Part shown: piece by piece, positions 3,208 through 55,925 of the stretch | How positions within the stretch are numbered: position 1 is the first letter of the stretch | How the letters are laid out: each line of letters opens with the position of its first letter | From: Bryoerythrophyllum caledonicum | Taxonomy: Eukaryota > Streptophyta > Bryopsida > Pottiales > Pottiaceae | NCBI GenBank assembly: GCA_963971425.1 | Contig: OZ020515.1 | Location: 32,685,856-32,749,855, forward strand | Length of the DNA stretch: 64,000 bases | Direction: 5' to 3' | The notes under the pieces: model-generated | The model's database searches: none | What the model saw: only the letters and a program-made list of their open reading frames with translations | Told to the model about the DNA's origin: nothing | Program-made: the position numbers and the translations under genes

Positions 3208-3238
3208 AGAGCTTTGAGGCGACTGGCGTGGTTTTGCT

Positions 3239-8700: not shown

Positions 8701-9260
8701 ATGGTCAAAAACCAATCATGCCGGCGGAGGAAGATGTACCCACATGGGTGTTTCTTTCATGGGAAGATGGCATAAGTACTGAGAGACTGCTGGAGCTTCG
8801 CATTCAACAGCTGCAAAGGTTACCAGAGGATCTTGAGATTGCATTACAGAAGATGAAAGCTGCAAGGCTGGGCAATAAAGAGCGTTTTGATAGAACACAT
8901 CGGTTGAGAAAGATAAAGATCAGAGAGGGTGATTGGGTTCTCGTGTTTGACAGCACGTTAGAGCATCAACACAGTACGGTGCGGAAATTTGCTAGGAGGT
9001 GGATTGGACCATATGTGGTGAACAAAGTGCACTTGAATGGCACTTATTTACTCCGAGAGCTGGACGGAGCTTCTTTGCGTGTGCCAGTAGCTGGGAAATG
9101 CATCAAACTCTTTCAGAGAAGAGGGAGGTTTCAGCTTCAAGACCTTGAAGAGATTTTTGATCCTCAGGACCCTGAGGATGGTCAGCAAGCTGAAAACAAA
9201 GATGAGGAAGAAGAATTGGGAGATGCAGTTGACAATAGCCAAGATATTGAAGATGCTTGA
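5619..9260 (+). pseudogene. Pol polyprotein (RT, RNase H, integrase) of the gypsy element, with three in-frame stops
   Basis: One reading frame holds the whole of Pol but is interrupted by stops at 6207-6209, 7041-7043 and 8616-8618. Reverse transcriptase covers about 6290-7140, with the catalytic FVDD box near 6880. RNase H follows (VTVDTSS near 7370, LETDCLP near 7575, a HIEGKKN segment near 7690). Integrase starts near 8060 with an HHCC finger (FHDTLWAGHRG ... CVVC). Its catalytic core has D in MIDLV, D in RADRG and E in GKIERGH, and a GPY motif (RRWIGPYVV) lies near 9000. No chromodomain is seen; the C-terminus is acidic. The three stops and the gag-pro/pol frame change make it non-functional as it stands, but the conserved motifs show recent decay. 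Confidence 0.9.
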
Positions 9261-12456: not shown

Positions 12457-13090
12457 ATTCGTGTTATTTTTAAAGACTTTTCTATTAATCTTTTTTGGGC
12501 TAGTTTCGTATAATTGACGATATTTAGAGATGGCTTTTTTGACGCATTCTCTTGCATATTTTGTAGTAATTTTCCGAGCTTCTTTAATGGGAGCTTTGGC
12601 AATGATTGCAATGTCTTTTAGCCAGTCTTTGTGAGTTGTGTTGGGTAGTGGTACTTGTGGGATTTGAGGGTGACGGAGGTTTTGTAGTTCGGAGAGTATG
12701 GGGTGGGTTCGCCAATTTTGGTTAGTTTTAGCAGTGTAAATTGTTTTACGAATAGTGTGGTATGTGGCAAGATGTTGTTTCCACTTTTTGGCTAGTTTCT
12801 CGGGAGGTACCTCCCTTGTTTCGAGGTTCTAGGTATGAGTTGTGGAATCGGGGGTGCTTTACAAGTCTTTTCTAATGTAATAGAAATTTCATTAATAAGT
12901 TTGTCAAGAGTTGTGCAAGCTTCTCGCCATTGTGTGTGTGTGAGGTGTTGGTGGTTAGAAAGAATATCTGTGAGGGAGTCTATTTGTAGTGAGTTTTTTT
13001 CAAAGAATATTGTATTAAAGTTATCAAGGTTTTCTTTTGGGATGGGGTTTAGTATTTTAATATCATTTTAGTTGATGGTTGTATGAGGTC
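12457..13090 (-). pseudogene. LINE A segment between endonuclease and reverse transcriptase
   Basis: On the minus strand this continues ORF2 from the endonuclease side of the transposon insertion. A stop lies within 20 nt of the insertion junction, after which a frame rich in L, I, N and K runs through about 13060-12830. No enzymatic motif is expected between the endonuclease and RT domains. It is LINE linker sequence with several stops. Confidence 0.6.
13081..13090. repeat. Left target-site duplication of the MULE-like transposon
   Basis: GTATGAGGTC, identical to 24711-24720. Ten base pairs fits the 8-11 bp usual for Mutator-like elements. Confidence 0.92.
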
Positions 13091-13141
13091 TGAGCGACGC
13101 TATCTTGTGAGCGGTGAGCGGCGAGCGGCGAGCAGGGAGCC
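13091..13141 (+). repeat. Left terminal inverted repeat with five 7-bp iterons
   Basis: After TGAGCGAC comes the 21-bp core shared with the right end. From 13107 the sequence tiles as 7-mers: GTGAGCG, GTGAGCG, GCGAGCG, GCGAGCA, GGGAGCC. Such iterons are plausible transposase-binding sites. The outermost 6-8 bp differ from the right end. Confidence 0.85.
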
Positions 13142-13508
13142 TAAAAATCTCTGGAAAAAAAAAAAAAAAAGTGTTTTTTTCAAAAAAATGTGAAATTCAA
13201 GGAAAAATCCACAGAAATGAAAAAATTGCACACAAAGTTTGATACAATTTACTAAATTAAGAATGAGTCCTATAACCGTGGTCACCTCAGCTTTGTCAAA
13301 ACAACTTCTGATTTGGGGTCTTCTCCTCTCTCGTGACTACGTTTCTATGAACATTCAATTTATTACTTAGTACAATATCATGTCTCATAAATTCTGAATT
13401 CAGGATTTTGATCCCCAATTCAAAAGTATAATTTGATATCTTGCTCACTCTGTGATGCTACTTAGGACCAAATCTTGACGTCTGATCTTTGCTACAAACT
13501 CTGACTAC

Positions 13509-16500
13509 TCATGCTTGTTCTGCAATGTTGGCAACTTCGAGAATGCGCATCACTTCGCTGAAGCTATAACTGGGAGCGTGCATGAATACGTCCACCTTGT
13601 AATCCATCTTACACAAGTAACGAAGGATGTAGTACACATGCTTGCAATACTTCCACTGCCCCTTTTTTCCCAATGCCTCCGACTGCATTTTCAAGAAATC
13701 AGGGCAAGAACACCCCGGGAGGTCCGTAAAGGTGATGCAGTAGGACTTTTCAAAGCATGTGTCAAGGGTAATAACACATCCCCAACCTGGGTATGGTATG
13801 GCAACGACGTTCGAAACGTAACAGTTATTCATAAGAGCCGCGCTTGACCACTTATTGCGTTGCTCAATTGTGGGAACGTCCGAGGCCCTACGGATCGCAT
13901 AGCCGTGCCGAAATGTGTGGAATGAATTTGGATTCACGGGAACCGGGAAGTGGGAACGCGGAAGGGGCATGTCCAAAGACACTTGGAATTGTCTACGTGG
14001 TGAAAGAGCACCACGTTGCTGCAATTGGAAACCGGCTTCCTCTAACACCAATACCTCTTGCACTGTTAGGTTTGTGCCAAACTTCACAGGCCACGTCATT
14101 GGAACTGCTGGCCAATCCAGTACAAATGATCGCTTTGATCCCTTCACACAACGGCTAATGTCATCAGGGCAAAACCAGAACTCCGCAGCAACATTTCGTG
14201 GACTCCTGAAATCCTTCTTAAAACCAGCGTATGTTGGGGCCGGAGTTCCATAACTTCCACGTTGTACTCGAGCGTTGCATTGCTGACCTGTATGAGCTTG
14301 CAATGCCTGGCATCTTCGAGCGGACTTCTTTGGAAGACGAGCAATGTGCCACTTCATTGGATCACAGTCCGACTCTTGGACGGAGGTTGTGTGTTGAACT
14401 CCGGAGTTTTGACCGCTAAGGGACTCCTCGATACGTGCCCGAGTCACCCTTGTCCCATCTCGTGGAATAGAGTAGTTCACCGTATCGGAACGGTGAGAAT
14501 CATGTTCGGACCCTGGGGGCAAATCAAGCTTGCGCTTCGTTGACCCAAAAATCTCCGAACCTTCTAGTCCGCCAGTTCGGTTTAATAGATCTGCAGCATT
14601 TGGAAAGTTCCTAATAGCCTCAGCAATGAGTTTGGGATCACCTGAACGTTGAGCAGAACGAAGCCTCAGCGTGCCTTTGTCCGGTCCAGTACCAGATGTT
14701 CTACCCTTCAACCATGCACGATATGAAGTTATCTGCATGAAAGCACGGATGAGATCGTCCACGGTGGCAGCGTACAAGCATGTCATCGTGTTCCCTGATT
14801 GTTGAAGCCACCGGTTGTGGACGGTTTCAGCGAGGTTGCATGAAGGCATGTCCGCCCTCTCATCCAGCGTCAGATCCTATAAGGAGTCAACGAGGGTCAT
14901 AAAATGATTTCAAAGCACTATAACAGATAGAACTGGAGAATAGATTGTATGAAAAGTACAGAGAACTTACAAGTTGCATTGCGCCGCCCCACTGTCGATA
15001 CCGAAAGTGCCAAAACGCCATCCAATCCTCAAGAGCTCGTCGCCCTACTTCGGTAGTGGCACCAGAGGACACCCACCACCCTCTTATTACATTATATTGC
15101 GCTTCAGCCTCCTCTTGTGACTTTGCATTCTTCCAGATCTTGCAAAGGGCAATATGTTGGTCTTGGAAGCCGGCAATAATGTTCCGAACGGTGGCTCGCT
15201 GGAGGCATTTCGTCCAATGGAATAGACAAGTCCGTTCCTTGTTGTCCATGGGCTTGTCTTTGTCGCCGTTGCCGTAAACTCGACGAACTGCGTGCCAGTT
15301 AGCTCCAGCACTATCCGCCATGAAGCCCTTGAAGTTCGTCGCCTCCAATCCATGGTTCTTCATCGTATTATTCAAATTCTCCCAGAAAAGCTGTTGTGCG
15401 TCAGCATCCTCGGATTGCATATCGCACATGGCAATTGTCATGACTCGACAATACTTACTATCGTATACATGACATGCCATGGTTGTCCATTCTTTGACCC
15501 GCTTGACATGATCGAACATCAACCAACAATCTTGTAGGTCATTCCCGGGTTGCATACGCTTGACAAGATCCACACCACTACCTGCTCGATCGACTGACAT
15601 CTTGAAGACAAATACTTTACCTTTGGATTGACCAGGGAACTTGTTCTCGTGTATGAACACGAACTTGGACGATTCTTTTAGGGCCATAATGTTGTCCATC
15701 ACTCCCTTACCACCACTATAGAACCTCTTGCAAGTTGACACAAGGTTTCTAATATTTGGAGATGAGAGTGTCTCGAATTGATCCAGGACAACGTCCATAG
15801 AAGCTCCTTCCAAAGTAGATGACCCGGATGTCGGACGAATCAAGTAGTCAGAAAGAAAGTTCTTGCTCGCTGCCATTATGATTGCGGAGTTCGTAGCCTT
15901 CGGTGTGCGCTGGACTTCTTTGGCAACACAGTCGTGGACAATGTCCATCGCGCACTGGTCGACGCCTTTTGAGATGGGATGGTCATGGTGCCCAAGATGA
16001 ATGGCCGCACGAGTGCGTGACGGATCGGTCGATGTCACGTAGTAGATACGAGCATCACAGAGAGATATACAAATAGGAGGAGTCCGACAAAGCTTACATG
16101 CCAATGTTGACTTCTCGGAGGGTGGTCCGTTGACAGGAAACGGGATGAAGGCGAACCCGCTCCACTCGGTTTGATTCGTGCGCCCTTCATTTCTGCTCTT
16201 ATAGTCACAACTTGCGTTGGGACACTGGAGATGCCCGGTACACGTTGACTTCCGGTATGTGAGGCTGAAGTCATTCTTGATGTTTGTAGTCATCGTCCTG
16301 CACCAAGCGTGACCATCGTACTGCTTACTCATACCATCGAGCCCCCCTCCAAACTGTGGGGGGATACCCTCTGGAAGTGGCGGTAGTTCAAAGATTTGGT
16401 TTCCATTGTAATCTGGAGGCAAGTACTTCACACTTTTCAGATCTAGACTATCTAGATCAATTCGTGACAACTCCGACCTGGACCCCTTCCTAAGACCTGT

Positions 16501-17070
16501 TTTACGCACTTGCAGAAGAATACTCCGTATTCTTCTGGATTTAGGATCAACTGGTGGCTTTCCTATTGAAACAGATTGGGACGTATCGGATATCGATGCA
16601 GGTGAAATAGACATACTGGGAAGGAATGACTTGTGACAATTGGTGAGATTTTGTGAGTTACCTACGTTGGGATCAGTGAAATCTTCTTCCTCTGTGTCGC
16701 TAAGTGTATGGACAATTGGGATAGACCTCGTGCCCAAACCAGGCAGGAGTATCGTATCTCCGGAATCCTCTGAAAAAGTGGTGACGGCTGTAGATGCATG
16801 ACCAGACATCTGAGCATCTAACACACCGTACACTTTGAATGAACCTGAACATAAATTCCACACAAATCCTACCGCATCACGATCTTTGACTTGATAAATG
16901 GATTGCGTGTGAATCCCGTTACTATCAAATACTTCCTGTTCGACTTGAACTGTTCCACTCTTAAATCCGAAACGAAGACAAAGCAAAGACTCTGCGACAA
17001 TGACAGTGCCACGTTCACCAACAGGCATGAGAAAAGGGATGCCCCCTCGACATGATGAAAGAGACGCCAT
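13509..17070 (-). CDS. MULE-like transposase with zinc finger, DDE core and SWIM domain (2 exons, 1155 aa)
   Basis: Exon 1 runs 17070-14971 and exon 2 14876-13509; the GTAAGT donor and ATAG acceptor join in phase 0. The predicted role is cutting and rejoining the transposon ends in the nucleus. Residues 277-365 hold paired cysteines and a HLGHHDHP segment resembling the WRKY/GCM1 finger of MULE transposases. The DDE candidates are D520 (WLMFD), D586 (GFMADSAG) and E681 (RALEDW), at spacings of 66 and 95 residues. A C-x-W-like HW pair (CLFHW) follows D586. A SWIM finger lies at C1089, C1091, C1111 and H1113. The N-terminal 250 residues are Ser/Thr-rich with no recognised domain. It is divergent to the ParB/methyltransferase-like gene, 603 bp apart. 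The assignment as MULE-type is supported by TSD length, domain order and SWIM; the exact E residue is less certain. Confidence 0.85.
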
Positions 17071-17673
17071 GTTCCAGGGGTCTCAGAGAAGGTTGAACAA
17101 CTTCGCGAAATGACCTTGGGTTGACGAAAGAGAATGAGTCACTGCTTGCGTCCACATTCAAATAAGATGGTTCATTGGCCTTTTTCCGGCGGGATAATAA
17201 ATTAATATTACACGTAGGATGCTCATGCAGCAATTCTCTTTCCTCCTGGACGGATACGACAAAAAGCAATGAAAGTCATGCTTGTAGTAGTCCGTGCATA
17301 TCTTAATATATCAAATTATCTAATCGGGGCTCCTTGAAACGGAAGGGTTGCCCATTGTTTTAATACCATGCCTGCAGTCTTTTTTCAATAGTGATGCTCG
17401 GTATACCTGTAAATATGAAGTTTGTGCCAGACGGTGGGATATATATGGTGAAAGTAACATTATTAGAGACTACAACGCTGTCTCTATTCAAACTAAAGAC
17501 TGTCAAGATCCGATATTTTCGAGAACTGAATCTATCCCCCCCGTCGAAGGTAGCATGATGAGATAAGTATTGCACGGTTGCGACCTTGCAGTTGTGACTA
17601 TTAGTGAGTGCTATACCTGCTAGTTTGTGATGTTTCAGAAGTGGAGATAACAGTCTAGGGTTGAGTGCTGAGG
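17071..17673. promoter_or_regulatory. Divergent promoter region between the transposon's two genes
   Basis: About 600 bp separate the two start codons and should contain both promoters. No coding frame of interest is present; a short minus-strand frame (17269-17015) is off-register with the transposase. I could not fix TATA boxes or operator-like repeats here. Confidence 0.45.
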
Positions 17674-20600
17674 ATGACTAAGAATGCTAGACAGAGGAGA
17701 AGACCTACAAAGTTTTCAAATCCTAAGCAAGTACGCGCTCAGAAGAAACGTCGAGAGAAGCTAGCATTATTAGCTTCTCAGAATACAGTAGTAGTGGGCG
17801 CAACATCAAGTAAGGAACTCAGGGATTTGACAACTATCCACAAAGGAGCTTCATCATCCCGTTACAGAGATCAGGTATTATTTGATTGGTGTTATTGATT
17901 TGCAGAGATTATTGACTCATATAAGTTGAGTAGTGTTAGGGCTTGACTACAGTCGTTCCAAGATCGTGCAGGTAAATAGGCCTAGTGAGCATATTTGTGG
18001 GAAGACACTAGAAGAGGACTTACTTCAAGCTAATACGATGAGTCAGTATCAGAGATCTGGTGCCTCGGATACCTCTTTGGAAAGAGGTAAGGAGACTGAC
18101 GACAGTTCTGAGGAGTCTCAGTGTCAAACGATGAAGTCAACTATTGCATCTGGAAGCCGAGGAAATCCATCAAGGTCTATAAAGATCAACTCCACTTCCC
18201 CAGCTCAAACACTCCCTAGTCTAGCTAGATTTCATCATCGAAGTAAGAACAGCAAAACCCCATCACAACCTGAGCCAGGACCAGGCTCATCGCCTCAGGT
18301 ACGTATCATAGCCTCCCTATCCGGCGTCTGCAGAACCTGATTGAATGAATAGTACTTCTAGAGTCTCAATGTCTCACATCGTACATATAGTTCATTCAAA
18401 TATTCTTGGAGCGCCAGGATTACCCGGGTGCAACCGATACCGTGAACCATGGGTCAACCAATAATTATAATATTCACTTCCTCAGCCACATCCTCAAGCT
18501 GCTCAGCCACTTCGATTAGGATTGCTGCTCTTCAGTTGCTCGTCGGTTTTCTTATCTCCAACTAGTGATAGACCACGTGCTGGTCCTCCTCGTTTAGGGC
18601 TTGGAGAAATAAAGTCAGGTGCTCGCGTGGAGCGGAGCTCGCTAGTAAGAGCAAGTTGCAATGCTCGTGGTGGAGGTACGCGCGTTTTTTTTTTGAAATT
18701 TTGGTTGCACAATTTGACCCTCGGATCCGAGGGTGGTCTGGGGAGTCGTGGTTTTTTTTTTTCCTCTTCACGAGTACTGCAGCTCGTCGGTTTTCTTATC
18801 TCCAACTAGTGATAGACCACGTGCTGGTCCTCCTCGTTTAGGGCTTGGAGAATTAAATTCAGGTGCTCGCGTGGAGCGGAGCTCGCTAGTAAGAGCACGT
18901 TGCAGTGCTCATGGTGGAGGTACGCGCGTTTTTTTTTTGAAATTTTGGTTGCACAATTTGACCCTCGGATCCGAGGGTGGTCTGGGGAGTCGTGGTTTTT
19001 TTTTTTCCTCTTCACGAGTACTGCAGCTCGTCGGTTTTCTTATCTCCAACTAGTGATAGACCACGTGCTGGTCCTCCTCGTTTAGGGCTTGGAGAATTAA
19101 ATTCAGGTGCTCGCGTGGAGCGGAGCTCGCTAGTAAGAGCAGATTGAAGTGCTCGTGGTGGAGGTACGCGCGTTTTTTTTTTGAAATTTTGGTTGCACAA
19201 TTTGACCCTCGGATCCGAGGGTGGTCTGGGGAGTCGTGGTTTTTTTTTTTCCTCTTCACGAGTACTGCAGCTCGTCGGTTTTCTTATCTCCAACTAGTGA
19301 TAGACCACGTGCTGGTCCTCCTCGTTTAGGGCTTGGAGAATTAAATTCAGGTGCTCGCGTGGAGCGGAGCTCGCTAGTAAGAGCACGTTGCAGTGCTCGT
19401 GGTGGAGGTACGCGCGTTTTTTTTTTGAAATTTTGGTTGCACAATTTGACCCTCGGATCCGAGGGTGGTCTGGGGAGTCGTGGTTTTTTTTTTTCCTCTT
19501 CACGAGTACTGCTGCTCGTCGGTTTTCTTATCTCCAACTAGTGATAGACCACGTGCTGGTCCTCCTCGTTTAGGGCTTGGAGAATTAAATTCAGGTGCTC
19601 GCGTGGAGCGGAGCTCGCTAGTAAGAGCACGTTGCAGTGCTCGTAGTGGAGGTACACGCGTTTTTTTTTTGAAATTTTGGTTGCACAATTTGACCCTCGG
19701 ATCCGAGGGTGGTCTGGGGAGTCGTGGTTTTTTTTTTTCCTCTTCAGGAGTACTACTGCTCGTCGGTTTTCTTATCTCCAACTACTCCTCGTTTAGGGTA
19801 CGCGTAGCAAGTTGCACGGTCGCAGGATGACAGAATCCGTAATAGGGGACTATCTCATACGCTCGTGGAGAATGTACGCTGATTTTTTATGTTGATTGCA
19901 TGCTTGGTGCTGAGGTTTGTATGTTGGTTTCAGGTGGAGGCCTCGGGTCAGAAGCGCTTAAGGAACGTTGGGTCCTTTGGGATGTCCATGACTAGAGGGA
20001 GCGTCCCCCTCGATGAGGTAGGCTGCTGCGTTCCGAGTGAGAGAGATTTATAGGCTCACTGTGTTTCTATGGTAACGTTCCTTTGTGCTTTAATATTTCA
20101 GGCGGCACCGCAAGAACAAGGGACGGTATCCTGTAGGGAGAGCTTAGATCCGATGAATCAACCTGAGGAGGAAGAGATCCATGACTTTGAGGGCGACTCG
20201 AGGATGGAATCGACCGAGCAAGCGTTGAGGAAGTCCATTCGTGGGACAGCGTCAGATGTCCTACAGAGGTCACTCTACCCTTCAATCGAGGAGCTCCTCA
20301 TTCCACTATGCCGCATGCTACCTATGACGGAAGTTCGTCTCCCCTTGAAGAGTGATGTTGAGAAGCTCAAGGCGGAGTTTGTGAAGGGATATCGACCCGG
20401 ATCCGCATGTTTCTATGTTGCGTCGAAGAGTTTCTCAATGACCGAGCAGGAGGTACTCCCTTCTGAGCGAGCCAACTGGTCTACACTTTGGCAAGAGGAG
20501 GATCGCAAGTTTGAGATGATGTTGCAGATGAGGCCGGAGTTGCAGTCGTTCTCAAACAAGTACTTCTTTATCTGGGATGGCAACCACCGCCACATTGCGT

Positions 20601-23600
20601 GGATGGAGGTGATATCCCAGATGCACTCTCGAGACTTCATCTTCCATTCACCGGTGAGGGCAGTGGTTCTAGAGCCGTGTTTGGAAAACCGCCATATTCT
20701 TCTCAACGCCATGACTGATCTTAACAAGTAAGATGCAATCCTCCTGGTTTTTGTTAATAATAATTCTGCAATTCTCCAATTATCATCGTTGCCATGGTCG
20801 TATTTGGTGGTTTAAATCCATATTGGTCATGCACGTATCTAAATTATGGTTTGTTTATTATAGGCAAAAAGAGGCTGATCACGTCACGCAACATTTATCA
20901 CATGAGTTGAAGAGGGTCCAACATTTCGGATTGTTGGACTTTGAGCAGTTGAAGGGCTTGATTAGTGATGATGATTATGAAGCTAGTGTGCACGAGTGGG
21001 GGAAGAAGACTACAAAGAAATGGTATCACATGACGTATGACGCATTTCAGAAACTCATGTTTGAGGTATGTTTATCAGCCTACACTTGAACTGAAATTAT
21101 CATTGCATTTTTGTTCAGTAACTGTTAAATTTTCATTATGTATTTCTGATGAATGTTGGTTTCCAGCGGGAGATTATTGCTGCCCAAGAGGAGTGCATAC
21201 GCAATTACAAGGATAGCCTTGTCACTGGTGTTGGTGTTGATCGCGTTGGAAGTCCAGCAGAGTTGGTGAGACTCTGCACTGATGCCGTGCACAAGAAAAA
21301 AATAGCTTGTCAAACAACATTCACACGGATGTTGGCGGTTGCAAACCCGGCGAACGGTGAGGAATTCTTCAAGGAGGTATGTGAATTTCAAATTTTATGG
21401 CATCTGTTTATGTTTTATCCATGTTGTTTCAATTTGTTTTAGTTTCGAACCATAACTGAGTCCAGTTATTCGTGCTCTACTTTAGGTGTTGCGTCATTTC
21501 GATATTTACCAGACTAAGCCAGAGATGACACTCGAGAAGCTCCAACTCATTTGCACGGCGAAGGTGGCTGGGAAGTTCAAGGGAAGATGGTGCAAATGGT
21601 GGAACATGAGCAAGGACAGTAGGGCGGAGTACAATTTCCCCAAATCGCCAGCTTCAGACACGAGTCTTCGGGGATGGATCGATACTGCAGCCTTTTGGGC
21701 AGGGGTGAGTTTTCCAAATCTCTATTGTCTATTGCAATTACAAGTAACAATTTTGGATATTGATTTTGTCTAAGAGATTGTACTGTATATTATAGTTGGA
21801 GGAGGAAATTGAGAAGAAGTTCTCGGAGCTAATTGAAGAGGACAACGTCGTATTGAAGAATGACGGGCTCCCTAATCCCATCCAAGACATTGGTTCTTGG
21901 ATGGAGGCTTGGAGCATCATGCTGTGGGCGAAGGCATTCAAGGACCACCTTGGGAGAAAAGGTGTGTTCTCGAAGTCAGAGGAGTTTCTAAAGCAGGAGG
22001 GATGCGAGAAGACCATGAAGCGGGCGGTGCTTCGCTACTTCTGGAGGGAGCTAGTGGTTAAAGGAGCGTTGGTGCCAAGTCAAATGCCCATCCGCTTCAA
22101 GAAGTGGACGGACCCTACTTCACCAGACTGTATCTTCACCGAGCAGCAGAGGCAGCGTTTTTCTCGTCATCACTTGGTGCAGTGCCCTTGGTACTTGGAG
22201 TTGAAGAATTCGGATCCCACACCGGGTGAAGAGCTTCAGCTTCGAAGAGACTGTGATTCCTTAGCCACTGGTGGAGATGGCGACATGCTTCCTTCTTCAG
22301 TTTCTGCCGTAGTTGAGGCAGTTGACGGTTTGCTTTTAGAGAAGGATCGTGCAAAGGCTGCGGAAAGGGCGACGAAGGCGGCGCTCAAGGCGGCAGAGAA
22401 GGAGGCATTGAGGGTGGAGAATCTCAAAGCGAAGAGTTTGAAGAAGGAGACGAGGGAGAGGAACAGGGAGTTGGCGGCATTTGTGGCAAAGGAGGGGCCT
22501 GAGAAGTTGTTTGCTCAGCTTGGAGGGGCAGCAGCGTTCGCTATTCCAGCTGCCATGGGACCGACGCAAGGCATTTCTCCATCGGGCAGCAGCCGACCCT
22601 CCACCTACGTGGCAAAGCCCTCGCAGACAATCTACACGATTCCTGCAGTGGAGCATTTGGAGTCTACTGTCGGAGTGGAGGTGATTTCTCAAAGCGCTCT
22701 CAGCATTATGACTTTGTTCGATAGTATTGCTGAAGAGGATGACCTGCCATCTCTTTGGTTAGAGATGCGGCAGTTTATGAAGGTGCATTCCGGGTCGCGT
22801 TTGCGGCATCACCGCGGAGAGCCTTGCGATGACGGTTTGGTGGACATGATACTCTTTGATGTCCCTGAGGATTTGCCCGTCCCTGGAATTGAGGGCGGTG
22901 GTTCGGTGCCGAGTTGGAACAAACTTCCAACTCAGCACTCTACTGGAGGAAAGCTCGAATCCCCTTGGATTCACCGATGTTTCGAGATGGCAGAGGCCTT
23001 GCTTCGCGATGGGGCACCGCTCATCGTGTTCTACCCAGACTCGAAGTTCATCTCGAACGAACTTCATGCTTGGGCTGAGTGGGCAGATTTCCGTGAGGAG
23101 ACAAAGTGGTTTGCCATTAATGGCTTGTCTCTCTCGCGCGAGGGCCATCCCGGGCGCACTCACAAGTGCTTCATGGTGAAGTGCTATGTGAGGAAGTTGG
23201 AGCCTTGGGTTCCATTTTCATTTAATGATAGGATGGAATTGTTGCTGGAGGGGATTCAGTTGTCATCAGATGGTCACTTGACCAATCTGATTACACAGGA
23301 GACGCTGACGATGAGGGGATCCACCAACCAGCCATGGCGTGGAGCACGAGAGAAGTCCTCCAACCTCATGGAGGCTCTTATCGACCTTTGTACCAAAGAA
23401 GATGAGATTGTCCTCGATCTTACAGCATCCACAGGTAAGTGTTCTACAGACTTCTTCTTCTCTCATGGTTTTTTTCCCTCATTTGCTAACTTCTATTAAC
23501 TTGTTTCATTATAATAGGTGCATCCATCAAGGCTTGTAAGGCCCTTAAGCGCCACATCCTCGCATTAGAAGAGGACGCTGGTTTGGTTGATGAGGTCCTC

Positions 23601-23853
23601 CGCCCTTTGATTCCGAGCACCATGGAAGTAGAGTCCGGAATTCAGCCACCGTTGCATGAAGGCTCTAGAAAACGCCCATTGGAGGTCGATGATGACGAGC
23701 CCGAGGTGAAGACCGCTCGCAAGAGGACTTGTAAGTACGTTTAGGGTCCCATCTTATTTAATTGACTTTCCGTTGAAGTTTACTGCCTTTGAAAATATTC
23801 AGTCGTTGACATCACCATTCCACTTGATTAATGCAGTCGGTCGACGTCGTTGA
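17674..23853 (+). CDS. ParB-like / beta-class DNA methyltransferase-like protein (10 exons, about 1245 aa)
   Basis: Exons: 17674-17874, 17972-18298, 19934-20017, 20102-20727, 20864-21065, 21167-21376, 21486-21704, 21796-23434, 23518-23730, 23837-23853; all GT-AG with matching phases. Residues 6-29 are basic, a likely nuclear signal. Residues about 265-395 resemble a ParB N-terminal domain, with DGNHR at 363-367 where ParB has GERR. Residues 806-855 are an Ala/Lys/Glu coiled coil. Residues about 965-1205 follow the beta-class N6/N4 methyltransferase order: motif IV-like VDMILFDVPE (DVPE at 978-981), a LLRDGAPLIVF strand, a GAREKSSNLMEALIDL helix, then motif I-like VLDLTASTGAS at about 1162-1172 and an acidic LALEED. 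Canonical DPPY and FxGxG are both altered, so activity is doubtful. The last exon could instead use the acceptor at 23803. Role inferred: DNA binding or modification in aid of the transposon. Confidence 0.8.
18539..19800 (+). repeat. Five 244-bp tandem repeats plus a truncated sixth, inside intron 2
   Basis: Units begin at 18539, 18783, 19027, 19271 and 19515, with a deleted sixth from 19759. Units differ at only a few positions, so the array is recent. Each holds an 18-bp perfect palindrome ACCCTCGGATCCGAGGGT (18717, 18961, 19205, 19449, 19693), two T-runs, and splice-like signals: a pyrimidine tract ending CAG before CTCGTCGG, and GGAG followed by GTACGCG. These would make a 137-nt exon and 107-nt intron per unit. 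Tested frames hit stops or lose phase, so I leave the array in an intron. ORFs on both strands here are by-products of the repetition. Confidence 0.92.
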
Positions 23854-24661
23854 TGGCTTCATCATCCACATCGGAAACCGGAGTGTTATCGCGCTTGTCG
23901 AAGGAGATGATGAGTCCGCCTCGTTCGTATCACATGAATCCTTGGGATTGGGGCATCGCACATGCGATGGCTGCCCTACCATCTCCTCCTCCGATTTCAC
24001 GAGTACCCCAACGCAGGTCCGCAGCAGAGCGCTTCATAGATGGGGAAGCGGTTGGTAGTGGTACGGATAGTAGTTCGCCTGGTATTTATGAGGATAGCTC
24101 AGAGGAGCTATCAGGGGAGGAAAATTGAATTATCCATTTGGTTGTATTTTTTTTTAACAATGCATGTTGTTTTTTTATATCTTTATTAAAGTCTTCTATC
24201 TATTGTGTTTTATTCAGGAATATCGATTTGTTTCTTTATATACTTAGCCAACGTAATTATCATTTGTGTTATGTTAATACATTTTATGTTTTGTGCCACG
24301 AGATTTTTACAATCTCAAACCATATTTATTGAACATGCCAATACTTTCAAAGTATCTAACTTTTCCAAATCAAAGTAGTAAAACAACACGGGTATCGCCT
24401 AGGTATTAGATGGATGTCACCCATGTATTAAAAGGATAAAGTAGATCCAATCCACGGCCATAGATGTCACTCCAGGTTTTTAGACGAATTGTTACAATCC
24501 TAAACATCAAGAATTACGTAGTCACAATGTCCAAATATCTTGTCGTTGTTTATTGTTGCATGTTATTAAATTATTGCCAAAAGTTTGTAAATTTAATCCA
24601 CGGCCTTAGGTACCATATATTTTTTTAGATTTTTTGGGCAAAAAAAAAACCAAAAAAATTG
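23854..24661 (+). other. 3' flank of the methyltransferase-like gene and subterminal region of the transposon
   Basis: A 92-codon frame (23850-24128) with acidic Ser/Glu-rich sequence lies out of phase with the preceding exons; it could be an alternative last exon. Beyond 24130 the DNA is AT-rich with no gene. Segments around 24390-24500 recur, diverged and inverted, near 46450-46530 next to another transposon end. Confidence 0.5.
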
Positions 24662-24710
24662 TGCTCACCGCTCGCTGCTCAAGGCTCACCGCTCACAAGA
24701 TAGCAATCCT
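24662..24710 (-). repeat. Right terminal inverted repeat with five 7-bp iterons
   Basis: Read on the minus strand from 24710 it starts AGGATTGCTATC. The iterons, from 24696 down, are GTGAGCG, GTGAGCC, TTGAGCA, GCGAGCG, GTGAGCA. The 21-bp core at 24684-24704 is the exact inverse of 13099-13119. Confidence 0.88.
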
Positions 24711-24720
24711 GTATGAGGTC
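24711..24720. repeat. Right target-site duplication of the MULE-like transposon
   Basis: GTATGAGGTC, identical to 13081-13090. LINE A sequence resumes here. Confidence 0.92.
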
Positions 24721-26246
24721 TACTTATAAGGGTGTTGTGAGGTATATTGAGTTGGATTGGGAAGTGGTCCGAGTTTAAGTTGGTTGTGGTATTGGTAATA
24801 GATGTATAGTGGGTATGGTTAGGTGTTTTAATGTAAAATCCATCTATTAGGCTAGTGTGTGTGTAATTAAGTCCACCTTGATGAGAGTATTGTGTATATG
24901 TTGGGATTAAATATAGTTCTAGGTTTTCTATATAATTCTGCCATTGATAGTCTATGTCAAGTGGGGGGGGTAAAAACCCCACCGTTTTGTCGTCCGATAA
25001 GGGCAATGTCGCGGTTAAAGTCCCCGCACAGTATTATTGTATGGTTAGTGTGTGTATTTATTTGTGAAGTGATGGAGTTTTGGATCTCCGGAATAAGCCT
25101 AGAGTCTTCTATATGCGAGGACATGTATAGATGAAGAATGAGCCATGGTTGGAGAGGTCCGTTGGTAATTTCAATAATTTGAAGATATGGTGATATATTA
25201 GCCGGGGTGGGGATTTTGGTAATATTTCCGGGCAAGGCATATGTTTGGTGTATGAGCATGAGTAAACCTCCTCTTGCCGGTGTATATGGCTTGCGTTGAT
25301 GGATGCATCGTGTGAGAGAATGAGTGTTATTAAATATAAGTTTATAATCTGGGAATGTTTTTTGGATGTATTTTGTGGATTTAGTAGCGGTTAGTTTAGT
25401 TTCTTGTATGGCAATTATGGCGGGTGGTGTGTTGGTGTGGGTGGTTAAGTTGTGGATACATGATAAGGCAGTGTTTAGCGTTGAGGCGTTCCATGTAGTT
25501 ATATATGTGTTCCTATTACCTATATTGTCATGGTTACAAAGTGGAGGGGAAACGTAGGCGGGTGTCGGAGTGGGGTGCGTATAAGCGTGAATAGGTTTGA
25601 AACATCTAAGAGCTTCAAGGATAAGACTGTGTGGGAAGTAGGGAAATTTTTGTTGTAGTTCATCGGAGGAGGGGGGTGGGGTTTGGCTATGAATGAAGTT
25701 GTAAAGGTCATTATGTAGAGAGGTTTTGTGTTCAAAAAGGTATTGATTTTCCTCTAGGAATTTGGTGTATGGGTGAGGTGTATCTATATGCCTTTCAGGG
25801 GGATTATGTAAAGAGGATAGGGTGTTTAGTAGCATGTTTGTCCAATGTGTTGGGTTTGTGTTGGTTGAATGTTGGTTGGTAATATTGTTGCATCTGTTAA
25901 TTGAAGGGTGGACGGTGGTAATTATGGCGAATAAGATAGGAGTGGATGGATGGTTTTTTTTTTGGTTTATGTAGTGAGAAATGTTGGGGTAGAGGGTGGA
26001 ATAGGTTTGGTGAAGTATGTGATTATTTTTTAGAAGTGGTGCAAAAGAGGATGCTAGGTGTTGATATTCGGGATAGAGTTTTATAGTATTCGGAGTAAAG
26101 TATATTTTAGATATTTTTTTGTGTGTTTTTGGATGGTTGTGGAAGATATTTGGCATTGCGCCGGGGTTAGTTTCTATGTCTCCGCAAAGTATAATTAATA
26201 GTTTACAATGAGTAATGTTTATGGCTGCTAGTGGGAGGGGTGTGGA

Positions 26247-26247
<1 letters not shown>
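24721..26247 (-). pseudogene. LINE A ORF2 N-terminus: 2A-like motif and endonuclease domain
   Basis: Reading from 26247 down, the frame leaves the glutamine-coding repeat and passes through LLIILCGDIETNPGAMP (2A-like), then a linker of about 200 residues. The apurinic-endonuclease-type domain follows: TTWNASTLN, AIQETKL, PARGGLL, and ILCGDFNRDIAL near 25020. The frame breaks at a run of eight C's (24961-24970 on the minus strand); the end of the domain (LNSDHFPIQLNIPHNT) is in another frame and stops at the transposon's insertion site. The enzyme would nick target DNA for target-primed reverse transcription. This copy is frameshifted. Confidence 0.85.
26154..26183 (-). other. 2A-like motif GDIETNPGA at the start of LINE ORF2
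   Basis: The encoded GDIETNPGAMP matches the 2A ribosome-skipping consensus DxExNPGP except that the last proline is alanine. It is preceded by a hydrophobic LLIIL stretch, as usual in 2A-like leaders of LINE ORF2 proteins. The substitution would be expected to prevent skipping. Confidence 0.75.
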
Positions 26248-26894
<647 letters not shown>

Positions 26895-27021
26895 ATATTT
26901 TGTTTTATAGTATATAGGTATATTATTCTTTTTTTCTTTTTTTCTTTTTTTGTTTTTTTTTGGTGTATTTTAGAATATATGTATACTATATTGTTTTTGG
27001 CTGCAGCGTTGTTTGACGCTA

Positions 27022-43728: not shown

Positions 43729-46078
43729 TAGGATTATATGCGCGTGTGGTTGATCGATCGAAAGCCGTCACTGTCGTGGTTTTGTCGTGGAGACTTTGAT
43801 TGTTTATGGATCTGACGTGGGAGGAGGTGGGGATCTAGGATGTAAGGTGGAGAGAAAACAAGCTGTTGCTAAGTTAATGTTGTTGGGCTTCGATTGAAGA
43901 GTGCTGCAGGGGTTTTGATGTACGTAGTTGATAAAAGGTAGGGCTCTGATGAAAGTGGGGTCGCAATGAAATGTACCCTCTCGTGCATATTGATCAATGT
44001 GTATATACTGAGTGATTTGTGTTGCAGGAGGAGCTCAGAAACCAGTTGAGGTGTACTTCAAGATAAAATAGACTTGTTGGGCAATGGGCTTTGATTTAAT
44101 CCTTAACCCTTAAGCGACAATCGGGAACCGTATGTACATGCACATATTTTACTAATGTAAAATTCAAAATATGTATTAAATTTTAGCAAGACTAATTTCA
44201 CCTTTGGATCGAAGATTTTTCAAATGACATCTTTCATATGGAGGTCATTTCAATATCTCAACCTTAGCATGTTCAAATACAACACCATACATTTAGAATA
44301 CAATGGCCACAAGTGGGTTGTTCTGACGCTTAAGGATTAAACGTCAATAGGGAACCGTATATATAGGCACACATTTTACTCTATAGAATACAAAAAACGT
44401 ATGAAAGTTTATCACAACTTATACCTTTGAATTGAAGATTCTTCAACTAACATCATTTATTTGGAGGTCATCTCAATATCTGAACCTTATTATGTTCAAA
44501 TACTACACCATACATGTACCATATTGTGGCCACCAATGGCACCTTCTGACATTTAAGGATTTAAACTTATTGAGAAAAGCAAGTTTGTTCCAAGAAGAAG
44601 AACTCCGGTCCCCAAAGGAGGCCAGAGTGAATAAAGTGTTTGTTTGTTCCACCACTAAATCCATGTCCACCAGGTTTGTTCCAATATATATTGTAACATT
44701 ACAATCTATGAGATGATGTATATAATTTCTAGCACAAATAGGGTTGTTTTAACACTAATTCAATTTGACACTATCATAGTACATAAGTTATTGACATTTT
44801 TTCAACACCCCACCAAAAAGTGTCAAATTTAGAGTGTAAAAAACAACTCCATTTGTACTACACTAAACTTAAGATTAAGTGCTATACTACATTTAATGTA
44901 ATAACCTCAATTGTCCACAATACTCTCATTGTGTATTTGTTGGAATTTAGTGTAACGCTCTTTGATAAGCCACCTGATAATGAGGGACAAGTGTTGAACT
45001 GTGTGTCTATTCTCCGAATTTAGTTTTGTTCTCCAAAATTAGAATTCTTTCCAAAATGAGAGTTTTCCTATATTTTTTCCAAAATTAGTTATTTTCTTCC
45101 ATTTTTTCCAAAATTAGGATTTTTATTCCAAAATTAGATTTCTTCAATAGGATGTGAATTCATGAATGTATTTTAACTCCATATTTGTTGGATTTAGGGA
45201 CAAAGCGTTTACCAAAAAAATACACGCTGTGAATTAGAGCTGAAACGCACATCCAAACTCTACACTAGGGAGGGCTATGAGTTTCCATTAAATTGGGAGG
45301 TAATGTTTACCACGGAAATCCCTAGGCAATAGGTACTAGGGATGACATTACATTACAAATCAAACTATAATATTTGAAAGAAACATATTAGTCGGCACTT
45401 CTTTTAGACCACATATGCTCAGTAAATATGTACAACTTAGTTTTCAAACTGAAGCTTCAGAAGTTACCAAATTCACTTCAAGCTACTATACCGGATTAAC
45501 ACCCTGCTTAAAGTTTAGCTCAAAACAAGCTACATGATGGACAAAAAGCGAGTTGTAATAGATATAGCTAAATATATTTTTAAAATTGTATTTAAACTCA
45601 AAAGAATTTCAATTCATCGTGTAGAGTACATGACTATGAAGAAAAGTAGCAATTTTTAAATGATGGTGTCGAGAAGTTGAAAAACACATTGCACACACAT
45701 CGGCTTGGTTCAAGCTAAAGTGTGCACCATCACTAAGTGCAATGAACTAAAAAGAAACTTTGCACACAGTTTAGCTCTACTAGAGCTAAAGTGTGCACCG
45801 GCATTTACTTCCTATCAAAAAGCATGAAGGCAATTACTGAAATTATTGGTTCCAAGAGTGATATATAGGATATTTGAATACAAATATCTACCAACTCAAC
45901 ACCAATGGATCTAATCATACTATATGAAGTATTACGCATGACAATCTGATATCCTATAAAATAAAAAATCAATTATTTGAGTCTATTACAATTTGGACGC
46001 AACAAGTGCCTCCAAAGTGGCCTTGATAATCACTACTTGCCCCCTTGGAGTTTTTGTTGTTGGATCTTGTCCTCGACC
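43729..46078. other. AT-rich intergenic DNA with no recognised gene
   Basis: Contains the LRR gene's 3' flank, a diverged tandem duplication (44100-44570), short CAAAATTAG-type runs near 45040-45140, and two related stretches near 45690 and 45770 (GCACACA, AGCTAAAGTGTGCACC). No frame resembles a protein. Confidence 0.6.
44100..44570. repeat. Diverged tandem duplication, about 230-bp period
   Basis: 44100-44335 and 44336-44570 share GGGAACCGTAT, TTCTTCAACTAACATC-type, GGAGGTCAT, TATGTTCAAATAC and CACCATACAT blocks in the same order. Divergence is clearly visible, so the duplication is old. Confidence 0.7.
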
Positions 46079-46560
46079 AGGATTGCTATATTGTGAGCGG
46101 CGAGTGGCGAACGTTGAGCACTAAATTATTTCACTTTTTTTTTCCACACTTTTTTAAAATTTGAAAGCAATGCCTATGGCCGTGAGTTATTTTTAGTCTA
46201 TCTTAACATGTGAAAAAAAAACACATAAAAACCTACAATAAAAAGATACTTGGAAATATTGAAGCCTGAATTATTAATGGTTTAGGATCAACAGTTCTTA
46301 AAAAAATCAAATCGGACACTTAAGGTTGCCAACTTTTTATTAGGATAATTTGATATGTTGGACTAGTCATTGGTCAAATTTGTACATAATTAATGGACAA
46401 TAAAGAGTGTTTGAATTTTTGGAATATGGAAGGGATTTTCGGGAGTTACCCATGTAATGCTACCGTCGTACCTTTACAATATCTAGGTCATATCCACTTC
46501 ATACCAAGGTGATATCTATGGCGTTCAAACGATATTGAATTGAAAAAATGAATTACTGTG
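46079..46560 (+). mobile_element. End of a second MULE-like element
   Basis: AGGATTGCTATATTGTGAGCG at 46079 matches the right end of the 11.6-kb transposon read inward (AGGATTGCTATC...). It is followed by diverged 7-mers (GCGAGTG, GCGAACG, TTGAGCA) and by subterminal segments resembling inverted 24390-24640. The other end was not found; no transposase frame follows. Confidence 0.6.
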
Positions 46561-52655: not shown

Positions 52656-53189
52656 ATTGTCTGAATGATTTTAAGTTGTTAGAATTCACCGACAATAAAT
52701 AACGTGTAAGTTTATTAAAACAATGAGGTGATTGATGAATGAATTGATCATTGGATTAAACTAGAACCTACATTTAGTAATTCATTGGAATGACATACCA
52801 AGATAAAATGGGAAACTCAACTACAATGATGATGTTAACAAATTGAAAGTCGGATGAGAAGACAAAACAACAAACCAATACTAAGGAAGCACAATTCATG
52901 TGCTGAGAAGTGATCGAAGTCACCCTTATTCAAAGGTTGATCACTACTATCAGAACCACTAGCTCTAACTCCAAGCCTATGAACAAACATGCGGCAAACC
53001 TCTGTCTAGCTACCTTTGGAAGACGTGGAGGAGATGCAAGCGCTGCCATCGCCTCTGCAACACTTGCATCCCACAAATTCAAACTAGTAAACGGCAGCGG
53101 TAGACTTCCAACCCTCCTCCATCCTACACAATACAAAAGTGATTTTACCATTAGCTGTTGCATCAAGTGCATCAAATTTTTGTATTTTG

Positions 53190-53860
53190 AAAAATAAATA
53201 TGACCCATGAAGACCCCTCTTTGGATACGAAGGTGGGTCTGTGGGATCAGATTTTTTTGTAACACCACAAATCTGTTGTTGTAATGACTGTCATGTGAGG
53301 TAAATTAAATAGTAAAATAATTGTGACCTTTGAGACCCACCTTTGGATCCAAAAGTGGGTCTCTGAGGTCACAATTATTTTTTAAAATCTCAGAATCCTA
53401 CCGAACTAATCTAATTCAAGTCATGTTTGAGGAATTCCAATGATCTGAAACACTAGCATCTGCATCGACGTAACAATCAATGACCTTTGATTAACGTGAT
53501 TATCATGCAATATGAGCCCCATGACATGCATGACGTGCTTTGATCTGTATGAAAGTATAGACGTGCATTCCAAGAGATCATCCAATATATGCAAGAAAGT
53601 GAACTTAGGAATTCATCAAACATGACTTGAACTAGAGTAGTTCTGTAGGATCCTGATTTTTTAAAAAAGAATCGTGACCTTGCAGACCCACCTTTGGATC
53701 CAAAGGTGGGTCTCAGAGGTCACGATTCTTTTTTATTATTTAATTCACCTCACATGATAGCCATCACTACAGTAGATTTGTGGTGTTAAGGAAAAAAACA
53801 TGATCCCACAAACCCATCTTTGGATCCAAAGGGGGGTCTTTAGGGGTCACTTTATTTTTT
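53190..53860. repeat. Foldback element: long inverted repeat with about 250-bp arms
   Basis: 53190-53440 is the inverse of 53605-53860 at roughly 85-90% by eye. Shared inverted blocks include CAAACATGACTTGAA and ACCACAAATCTG/GATTTGTGGTG. Each arm also contains the short GGATCC-centred hairpins described separately. Arms of this size fit a foldback or MITE-like element; no coding sequence is present. Confidence 0.75.
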
Positions 53861-54565
53861 AAATAACTACAAAATCCGCACACTAGTTAGAGGAGACTAG
53901 ACCAATATGAGGTCTACATGACTTGTATGACCTAGATGAAAGCAAAGACGTGCATTAAAAGAGATCATCCCATGCATGCAAGGAAGTGAACTTGAAAATT
54001 CATCAAACATGACTTGAAGTGGAGTAGTTTAATTTTTTTAAAAATATTTTTTAAATTAAAAAAATATTATTTTTTAAATTAAAAAAATATTATTTTTTAA
54101 ATTAAAAAAATATTATTTTTTAAATTAAAAAAATAGTTGTGACCTTTGATATCCACCTTCAAATCCAAAGGTGGGTATCCAACGTCATTTTTTTTTCAAA
54201 AAAATAATTTTAATTTTAAAATTTTTTAGAGAACTAAAAAAATAGTTGTAACCTTTGATATCTGTCTTTGGATCCAAAGGTAGATAGCCGAGGTCATTAT
54301 TTTTTTCTAATTTTTTTTTGTGACCTTTGATATCCACCTTTGAAACTGAAGGTGAGTAATCCATGTCATTGTTTTTTTTTTCTTAAAAAAATATTAAAAA
54401 AATAAAATAAGAATTAATAACTAAAAAAATAATTGTGACCTCTAATATCCACCTTTGGATTCAAAGGTGGGTCTCTTGGATCAGTATTTTTTTTAAATTT
54501 AAAAAGAATTTGTAACCTTTGAGACCCACGCTTGGATATGAAGGTAGATATGAGGTGTCATAAAT
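53196..54565. repeat. Array of nine short hairpins centred on TTTGGATCCAAA
   Basis: Approximate positions: 53196, 53323, 53673, 53805, 54139, 54249, 54320, 54430 and 54510, each about 50-60 nt. The consensus stem reads GTGACCTTTGAGACCCACC, then TTTGGATCCAAA, then the inverse. The best copies (53323, 53673) are near-perfect palindromes; later ones have decayed arms and centres. They are separated by A/T runs. Confidence 0.85.
54030..54135. repeat. 23-bp AT-only tandem repeat
   Basis: Four to five units of TTTTTTAAATTAAAAAAATA-type sequence sit between hairpins of the array. Confidence 0.85.
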
Positions 54566-54570
54566 TTTTT

Positions 54571-55925
54571 AAAAATTGAGAAATCCGGGAGTCTAGTGGA
54601 CAAAAGTAGATGATGTAGAGAAGATATTGCATGACAATGAAGACCATGATCATGAGCAAACACAGACGGCCACATGGCCACGTTGCTGCCCTGTCGAGGC
54701 TCCTCTTTGTCTTCCAATAAATGGCCCCCAAGAAATGGAAGAGACCCCACAATGAAGACTTCACATTGAAGGCTTTTGAAAAAATGGCACAAGACTCCGT
54801 GATAGATTATCACAAGATCAACGTGCAATACCTCCACGCTAAGAGTTTGTGCATGTCCTACTTTGATGTCCATCTCCGTATAAGAGCTGTCCCTAAAAAA
54901 TCGAGTGACCACCACTTGCAAAAGCCGCCCAAGGTTTATGAGAATTGTATCAATGAAGTGAACTCTAAAACCTGAAGTAGAGACCCCTATGATTGGCGCC
55001 ACTTACTAGTCTCGGTATGAAGTTTCTAGACTTAGTAGAAAGCTCCCTGTGAGCCGCAAAAACAGCTTACAGTGACGAAAGGACCACGCATCGTGTCCAT
55101 TAAGGTGAACAAGTAGAGGAAATGGGTTATCCCATTGGTTAGCTCATGGTTTTTGATCAAAATGGCTAAATAGCCTTTCCATGCGCTAATTCTTTAATTA
55201 GGAGCCACATGGTGGCAACCAAGAATTTTATGAAGTTAACCAAAAAAGAAATAGAAAGGAAAAAATAGAGAAAAGGTTGGAAAAAACAAAAACAATAGAA
55301 AAGAAGTAGAAATTGAAGTGGTGGAGAAGAATGTACCTCCTACCTAGTCGGGGACCACAAGTGGCCACGGTGAAGAAACCACGGGAAAAATTAGAAGAAG
55401 AAGAAGAATGGTGGAAAAAAAAGGAAAAAAAGGAATGGGGCCTAAAAAAGCCATGAAAAAATAAGTAGATAGGGTCGAAAAGAAGTGGGAAAAACCCTCA
55501 CCATCACTTGGTAAATTAATCCTAACTCCAAGCAAGGGGAATTCAATTTAGGTAGATTAGTTAGATTTGGCATCCTTGAATTTAGCTAAAAAGCTCACTT
55601 ATTGGAGATCATGCACAAACCATGTGGCATAGAGTTAAAGTTAAGATTTAGATATTCCTTGGTTAGTGGGACACCCACTTTTGTTAATGCAAGGGTGGCA
55701 CGGACTTAGGTAGATATAGATTAATGGTTTTTTATTCAAAAGGTCACTTATGGAGGAAGGAAAAGACCGCACCGAACATCCTTGGGAACGCAAGGGAAGC
55801 AAGGGCTTGGGAGTTACCCCCAGGAAGAGCTCATTAGTAAGTGTGCAAGCAATGTGGGGAGAAAAGAAAAAAACTAGAGAGAGAGACTAAGAAAAGAGAT
55901 AGAGCCAGATCCCCAGTCACACACA
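54571..55925. other. No confident gene
   Basis: A plus-strand frame of 84 codons (54721-54975, Lys-rich) and an overlapping minus-strand frame of 167 codons compete for the same DNA; neither resembles a known protein. The rest is A-rich. Confidence 0.4.

What the first reader, a model, noticed from the sequence alone, without database searches (positions are those of the whole stretch)
17674..23853. A plant DNA transposon carries a ParB-like plus DNA-methyltransferase-like protein
Seen: ten exons with consistent GT-AG signals and phases encode about 1245 aa, including a DGNHR-centred ParB-like segment (residues about 265-395) and a C-terminal region with methyltransferase motifs in beta-class order (IV, V, then I at the end). 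Known: ParB fused to N6/N4 methyltransferases is familiar from phage and mobile-element proteins of prokaryotes. Inferred: this is a transposon accessory system that binds and marks (or reads) DNA, perhaps to protect the element from silencing, mark its ends, or time transposition. I know of no established description in a plant MULE.
Basis: partly seen in the sequence, partly recalled or inferred. Interest (0 to 1): 0.95.

Follow-up and report, generated by a model that had tools for sequence, protein, structure and literature searches.

The report
Plant transposon with bacterial-type DNA-binding gene
An 11.6-kb jumping gene in what looks like a plant genome carries, besides its transposase, a second conserved gene that looks like a bacterial DNA-binding protein joined to a DNA-methylating enzyme with an altered active site, and an array of mirror-image DNA sites that this protein may bind.

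Summary
Positions 13092-24711 are one 11,620-bp DNA transposon (10-bp target duplication, inverted repeats) inserted in a LINE. It holds a 1155-aa transposase (minus strand) and, divergently, the reported gene. Exons 4-9 are confirmed by relatives with the same introns; exon 10 is longer than reported (to 24128; 1338 aa); exons 1-3 have no outside support.

The C-terminal domain is beta-class N6/N4 methyltransferase-like (PF01555, E=1.9e-5, just under cut-off). Its catalytic motif is D[VIM]PE, not DPPY, in 11 of 11 sequences covering it, yet dN/dS is about 0.1: constrained, but probably not an ordinary methylase. The ParB-like part rests on the DGNHR motif; no profile or confident fold supports it.

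New here: GGATCC-centred palindrome arrays 5' of the DGNHR exon, in this element (five 244-bp repeats, intron 2) and in one relative (four units); a third lies beside a decayed copy. This resembles VANDAL/VANC anti-silencing in Arabidopsis MULEs.

The kind is not new: ParB+methyltransferase accessory proteins are in print for brown, red and green algal transposons. The MULE-like setting, altered motif and arrays make this a new variant.

The parts
13082..13091 (.). left target-site duplication TATGAGGTCT
   Evidence: identical to 24712-24721
24712..24721 (.). right target-site duplication TATGAGGTCT
13092..24711 (.). whole transposon, 11,620 bp
   Evidence: TIRs, TSD, terminus CAGGATTGCTAT seen again at 46078, empty site in a LINE
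13099..13140 (+). left terminal inverted repeat (core)
   Evidence: 86% complementary to 24663-24704
24663..24704 (-). right terminal inverted repeat (core)
14971..17070 (-). transposase exon 1 (spliced protein 1155 aa, no stop); D residues in LMFDHV and FMADSAG, C..H in CLFHW, by eye
   Evidence: no Pfam hit for the spliced protein
13509..14876 (-). transposase exon 2; NLAETVHN and SWIM-like CxC...CxH, by eye
17674..17874 (+). predicted exon 1 of the accessory gene, basic N-terminus; no relatives found
17972..18298 (+). predicted exon 2; no relatives found
18538..19784 (.). 244-bp tandem array (5.1 copies) in intron 2, each of five units with the 18-bp palindrome ACCCTCGGATCCGAGGGT
18717..18734 (.). 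palindrome 1 (others start at 18961, 19205, 19449, 19693)
   Evidence: 5 found, 0.00 expected in 100 shuffles; the units are copies of one another
19934..20017 (+). predicted exon 3; no relatives found
20102..20727 (+). exon 4, ParB-like region with DGNHR at 20576-20590
   Evidence: 14 relatives, best E 2.2e-80; alignment A3
20864..21065 (+). exon 5
   Evidence: 67% identical in L002
21167..21376 (+). exon 6
   Evidence: 61% identical in L001 and L002
21486..21704 (+). exon 7
   Evidence: 72-73% identical in L001 and L002
21796..23434 (+). exon 8: linker and methyltransferase-like domain; motif IV DVPE at 22858-22869; motif I from 23416
   Evidence: 9 relatives, best E 4.9e-225
23518..23734 (+). 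exon 9 with the end of motif I (GAS) and motif II-like ALEED; end corrected from 23730
23837..24128 (+). exon 10, corrected frame and end (reported as ending at 23853)
   Evidence: same frame in L001, L002 and the relic; L001 has a stop in it
46078..46143 (+). terminus of a related element
   Evidence: 77% over 73 columns to the right end; sequence
52978..53082 (-). decayed piece of exon 10 of a second accessory gene
   Evidence: 51% over 35 aa, E 3.4e-5
53185..54575 (.). array of nine diverged palindrome units beside the relic, four of them with an exact GGATCC centre

Best explanation
SHOWN: an 11.6-kb DNA transposon, inserted in a LINE, carries a transposase gene and a divergent gene for a ParB-like (by motif) plus methyltransferase-like protein that is under purifying selection in relatives. 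INFERRED: the protein is an element-specific DNA-binding factor. Its ParB-like part, possibly as a dimer, recognises arrays of GGATCC-centred palindromes carried by the element. Its methyltransferase-like domain keeps the fold and perhaps the cofactor site but, with D[VIM]PE in place of DPPY, serves as a DNA-reading or regulatory module and not as an ordinary methylase. By loading on the arrays it marks out the element's own copies, and there counters host silencing or controls expression and transposition, in the manner of VANC proteins of Arabidopsis VANDAL MULEs.
For: Element limits. Conserved gene: 9 relatives of exon 8 and 14 of exon 4; all six introns between exons 4 and 10 shared with L002; dN/dS 0.10 for exon 8 between L001 and L002, 547 codons, and 0.11 for its methyltransferase part. 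Methyltransferase homology: PF01555 E 1.9e-5, phrog_3008 E 1.7e-6, PADLOC MTase_II E 1.6e-7, hhalign probability 85% over 62 columns (motifs X to II); motif IV aligned by eye. Catalytic change in 11 of 11 sequences covering it. Sites: core CTCGGATCCGAG in 5 of 5 window units and in 3 of 4 L002 units, both arrays 5' of the DGNHR exon. In the window, TGACC...GGATCC...GGTC occurs only in the two loci of this family, 7 sites (11 matches over both strands), 0.08 expected (pattern chosen after seeing the sites). [quoted passage not shown]
Against: Binding, anti-silencing and loss of catalysis are untested. ParB membership has no profile support and the model has pLDDT 42. Only three arrays are known, the five window units are near-identical copies and so not independent, L001 has no 5' flank, and the cores differ (TCGGATCCGA against TTTGGATCCAAA); only four of the nine units in the third array keep GGATCC, and only one of four L002 units fits the wider pattern. 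L001 and L002 show no transposase and no terminus of this element, so linkage to a transposase rests on this one element. Palindromes of any kind with arm 7 or more are not in excess by number (9 against a mean of 3.8, largest 10, in 60 shuffles). D and P of motif IV are kept, so some activity cannot be excluded.
Confidence: 0.45

Rival explanations
1. The protein is an active N6-adenine or N4-cytosine methyltransferase that methylates its own transposon, perhaps at GATC in the palindromes, to protect it or time transposition.
For: Methyltransferase motif order and conserved motif X, I and II regions; strong purifying selection; the authors of PMC12477816 propose self-modification for the brown-algal gene.
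Against: The aromatic residue of motif IV is replaced by E in 11 of 11 sequences covering it, where three phage enzymes have DLPY, DPPY and DLPF; motif I has STG where those enzymes have GSG.
Confidence: 0.22
2. The palindrome arrays are not sites of this protein but of the transposase or a host factor, or are hairpin repeats; the accessory protein does something else.
For: Arrays differ in unit length, spacing and core; inverted repeats are common in transposons (recalled).
Against: In the 64-kb window GGATCC-centred perfect palindromes with arm 7 or more lie only in the two loci with this gene or its relic (4 after collapsing the array; mean 0.08, largest 1, in 60 shuffles), and L002 has them at the matching place on a contig without a transposase.
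Confidence: 0.2
3. The ParB-like part is a nicking or NTP-dependent nuclease that helps excision, replication or segregation of the element.
For: ParB-like domains, one fused to a methylase, have nicking or nuclease activity (passages of PMC5512222).
Against: No test here; I identified no nuclease signature beyond the DGNHR motif.
Confidence: 0.08
4. The gene is a captured passenger (Pack-MULE-like) with no role in the element.
For: MULEs are known to capture genes (recalled; Pack-MULEs are also named in PMC12477816).
Against: Low dN/dS between diverged relatives, introns kept, relatives on several contigs.
Confidence: 0.05

Closest known systems
Sola1-1_Ec32 accessory protein of the brown alga Ectocarpus (PMC12477816), with green and red algal cases that it cites
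   Same: ParB-like plus N4C/N6A methyltransferase-like domains in one protein (1104 aa there, 1338 aa predicted here), on the strand opposite the transposase of a large DNA transposon
   Different: Sola-1, not a MULE-like element. Whether its catalytic motif is intact and whether it has palindrome arrays could not be read here.
VANC proteins of Arabidopsis VANDAL MULEs (PMC5735166, PMC10398659)
   Same: Accessory gene in a MULE; short motifs in tandem arrays in non-coding regions, including introns of the accessory gene
   Different: Target motif YAGTATTAY for VANC21 against GGATCC palindromes. VANC is not described in the passages read as ParB- or methyltransferase-like; its sequence was not compared here.
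Phage and plasmid ParB-methylase fusions (PMC5512222)
   Same: ParB-like domain joined to an adenine methylase
   Different: Prokaryotic. The window's DGNHR exon has no match in the phage collection; its relative P0022 has only chance-level matches in plasmids and phages. Catalytic motif altered here.
Phage DNA methyltransferases (OM638088 and OL348188, annotated adenine-specific; MT939242, annotated DNA methylase)
   Same: VDMILCDLPYG, VDMVLADLPFG and VDMVLTDPPYG resemble VDMILFDVPED; same motif order
   Different: Stand-alone enzymes of about 250 aa with an aromatic residue in motif IV; tblastn matches are weak (E 0.009-0.4)

Membership tests
ParB/sulfiredoxin superfamily | D-G-x-H-R signature | tested here: met
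   Exact DGNHR in 11 of the 13 exon-4 relatives that cover it (variants in P0014 and P0021; P0023 does not reach it), and in the window and L002. That the signature is ParB's is recalled.
ParB/sulfiredoxin superfamily | match to a ParB profile | tested here: not met
   No ParB family listed for the 15 members in Pfam at E up to 10; none for the members tried in PHROGs, NCBIfam (3 each) and PADLOC (2)
ParB/sulfiredoxin superfamily | ParB fold | tested here: inconclusive
beta-class N6/N4 DNA methyltransferase | motif order IV, then X, I, II | tested here: met
   motif IV placed by eye
beta-class N6/N4 DNA methyltransferase | profile match | tested here: inconclusive
   PF01555 25.2 bits against cut-off 26.7, E 1.9e-5; phrog_3008 1.7e-6
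beta-class N6/N4 DNA methyltransferase | catalytic (D/N/S)PP(Y/F/W) or DLP(Y/F) | tested here: not met
   D[VIM]PE in 11 of 11 sequences covering it; the general consensus is recalled
Mutator-like element (MULE) | TSD of 8-11 bp (recalled) and TIRs | tested here: met
   10-bp TSD, 42-nt TIR core at 86%
Mutator-like element (MULE) | MULE transposase profile with DDE and SWIM | tested here: inconclusive
   No Pfam hit for the spliced protein; Transposase_mut E 0.22 for the first ORF; DDE- and SWIM-like motifs seen by eye only
ParB-methyltransferase transposon accessory proteins of algae | both parts in one protein, inside a transposon, opposite in strand to the transposase | tested here: met
   the ParB part by motif only
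ParB-methyltransferase transposon accessory proteins of algae | sequence homology to the Ectocarpus protein | not testable with these tools
VANC-type anti-silencing | short motif in tandem arrays in the element's non-coding DNA | tested here: met
   arrays; that they are targets of the protein is untested
VANC-type anti-silencing | protein binds the motif and causes loss of DNA methylation | not testable with these tools
   needs experiments
VANC-type anti-silencing | sequence homology to VANC | not tested
   no VANC sequence was fetched

The most novel reading that the evidence does not exclude
A DNA transposon of a plant or streptophyte alga has turned a bacterial-type ParB-methyltransferase fusion into a self-recognition system. 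A conserved, catalytically altered methyltransferase joined to a ParB-like domain loads on parS-like GGATCC palindrome arrays in its own gene, and switches chromatin of its own copies, a VANC-like function reached from an unrelated protein.
Probability: 0.3. Interest if true: 0.85.

Novelty: new variant of a known kind. Interest (0 to 1): 0.62.

Why it matters
It would extend transposon-borne ParB-methyltransferase proteins from brown, red and green algal elements to a MULE-like element of a plant-like genome. It gives the class a concrete candidate DNA target, which makes its function directly testable by DAP-seq. It also suggests that methylation need not be the function, since the catalytic motif is altered in every member of this branch seen here while the protein is under strong constraint. 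If confirmed, sequence-specific self-recognition by MULE-like transposons would have evolved at least twice, from unrelated proteins.

Tried and rejected
Full-length protein search scored nothing at E up to 0.001, probably because its length filter excludes single-exon ORFs; exon-wise searches worked. Rejected: 'no precedent'. Rejected: the reported 3' end. Rejected: exon 18486-18675 as coding, since it breaks the frame. Pattern scans of viral contigs confirmed no relative; two exact palindrome patterns were absent there. PDB profile searches gave no ParB or methyltransferase; the hits were weak and looked unrelated. A single-sequence PDB search of the methyltransferase part gave adenine-specific methyltransferase DpnA (5hfj, 5hek), E 0.011. 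The Wolbachia phage WO record and a Nostoc plasmid were fetched to find a ParB seed for profile comparison; none was used. AY129337 and the Petroll 2025 and Iyer 2011 papers are not held. PMC12695648 (6mA in eukaryotes) holds no 'ParB'. CpG observed/expected of the element (0.84) against the window (0.74) was not informative. Rfam and tRNA scans were empty.

Full report
1. The element. Inverted repeats at 13099-13140 and 24663-24704 (42 nt, 86%) lie just inside a 12-bp exact match shared by the flanking regions (found in 6 of 100,000 pairs of shuffled 36-bp flanks). An independent terminus at 46078 begins CAGGATTGCTAT, exactly as the right end does, which places the element at 13092-24711 (11,620 bp) with a 10-bp target duplication TATGAGGTCT. 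On either side, on the minus strand, lie an ORF with a weak endonuclease match (24957-26969; E 2.5e-4 for the part scanned, under its cut-off) and a reverse-transcriptase ORF (10668-12143, E 1.8e-26), in the order of one LINE. Joining the flanks at one TSD continues the same reading frame across the junction, with a stop seven residues on and a later frame change, so the LINE was already decayed; the same frame alone would occur by chance one time in three. I conclude that both genes lie inside a mobile insertion.

2. The transposase. Two exons on the minus strand (17070-14971, 14876-13509) give 1155 aa without a stop. DDE-like and SWIM-like motifs are visible by eye, but no Pfam model matches the spliced protein; Transposase_mut reached only E 0.22 on the first ORF. 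With a 10-bp TSD and TIRs I call it MULE-like, not proven MULE.

3. The gene model. The reported ten exons reproduce exactly as 1245 aa. The search for related loci gave two loci, L001 and L002. Their records are named as a cyanobacterial MAG, but the gene has spliceosomal introns, so I read them as eukaryotic contamination. All six introns between exons 4 and 10 in L002 are at the window's positions. Their 3' donor TGTAA|GTAAGT corrects the window: exon 9 ends at 23734 and exon 10 is 23837-24128, a frame shared with L001, L002 and a relic at 52978-53082. L001 has a stop within that exon. The protein is then 1338 aa. Exons 1-3 have no support: no match beyond chance in L001 or L002.

4. Relatives and constraint. 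Exon 8 has 9 relatives (39-66% identity), exon 4 has 14 (45-69% in alignment). dN/dS is 0.10 between L001 and L002 over 547 codons, and 0.11 for the methyltransferase part (254 codons). Against the window it is 0.17, with dS near saturation; for exon 10 it is 0.34; for exon 4 dS is saturated and no ratio can be given.

5. Methyltransferase-like domain. PF01555 (E 1.9e-5, below its cut-off), phrog_3008 (1.7e-6), PADLOC MTase_II (1.6e-7) and NCBIfam CcrM (1.8e-4, far below its cut-off) match, mostly over the motif X to II region. A profile of three phage methyltransferases aligns over 62 columns of that region by hhalign (probability 85%). Their motif IV reads DLPY, DPPY and DLPF; aligned by eye, it is D[VIM]PE here in 11 of 11 sequences that cover it: the window, L001, L002 and P0001-P0008 (P0009 ends before it). 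Motif I reads D[LI]TASTG in 7 of 9 sequences that reach it (six to its glycine; the window's glycine comes from the splice); P0007 reads DLTTTTG and P0003 DLTASTC at the exon end. That these replacements abolish catalysis is inference; METTL14-like pseudo-enzymes are recalled as a precedent.

6. ParB-like region. DGNHR is exact in 11 of the 13 exon-4 relatives that cover it. No profile library tried recognises it and AlphaFold gave pLDDT 42. 'ParB-like' is thus a motif resemblance plus the precedent of the domain pair, not a demonstrated membership.

7. The palindrome arrays. Intron 2 holds five near-identical 244-bp repeats, each with ACCCTCGGATCCGAGGGT. L002 has, 5' of its DGNHR exon, four units spaced 106, 107 and 109 bp; three of the four carry the same core CTCGGATCCGAG, inside perfect palindromes of 14 to 30 bp. 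A third array of nine diverged units, four with an exact GGATCC, lies at 53.2-54.6 kb beside the exon-10 relic. Collapsing the 244-bp array to one unit, the window has four GGATCC-centred perfect palindromes with arm 7 or more (60 shuffles: mean 0.08, largest 1), all in these two loci; palindromes of any kind are not in excess by number (9, mean 3.8, largest 10), though the longest arm is 15 against at most 11. TGACC...GGATCC...GGTC occurs at 7 sites, all there (0.08 expected, pattern chosen after the fact). In L002 that pattern is met at one of four units.

8. Mechanism. A gene under constraint, with a DNA-binding-type domain pair, an altered catalytic motif and conserved palindromes next to it, is best read as an element-specific DNA-binding regulator. 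[quoted passage not shown] I rate a VANC-like role most likely (0.45), active self-methylation next (0.22).

9. Prior art. [quoted passage not shown] neither of those two is held). PMC5890265 (listing only) reports cytosine methyltransferases in retrotransposons of charophytes and dinoflagellates, a different enzyme and element. In the listings (20 of 23 papers shown; 20 of 2,365; 20 of 212; none; 10 of 152) I saw no report of a ParB-methyltransferase gene in a MULE or of palindrome arrays with it.

10. Limits.

Noticed in passing
L001 1-3103 and L002 1-4691 (CADCWO010000134.1, CADCWO010000058.1): A species genome named as a Synechococcales cyanobacterium (AVDCRST_MAG81) holds contigs with a spliceosomal-intron gene of this family: apparent eukaryotic contamination of the MAG.
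   Followed up: partly
46078-54600: A second, decayed relative, if its pieces belong together: a terminus at 46078, an exon-10 relic at 52978-53082 (-) and an array of nine palindrome units; the stretch between holds other repeats, one 73% alike to 36908-37998.
   Followed up: partly
2971-3189 and 10844-11062: A 219-bp segment 98% identical in two places, beside a Ty3-like element and within the LINE reverse-transcriptase ORF; a recent shared insertion or duplication.
   Followed up: no
26248-26894: A 647-bp TGT microsatellite inside the LINE-like ORF on the minus strand, read as long Q, N or T runs.
   Followed up: no
55925-60551: A 4.6-kb satellite of 44-bp units, about 106 copies at 82% match.
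   Followed up: no
3218-9260: Ty3-like LTR retrotransposon polyprotein in several ORFs, with reverse transcriptase, RNase H and integrase domains.
   Followed up: no
18484-19784: Each 244-bp unit also holds an exon-like stretch ending in a GT donor, open in one frame; it may be spliced alternatively.
   Followed up: no
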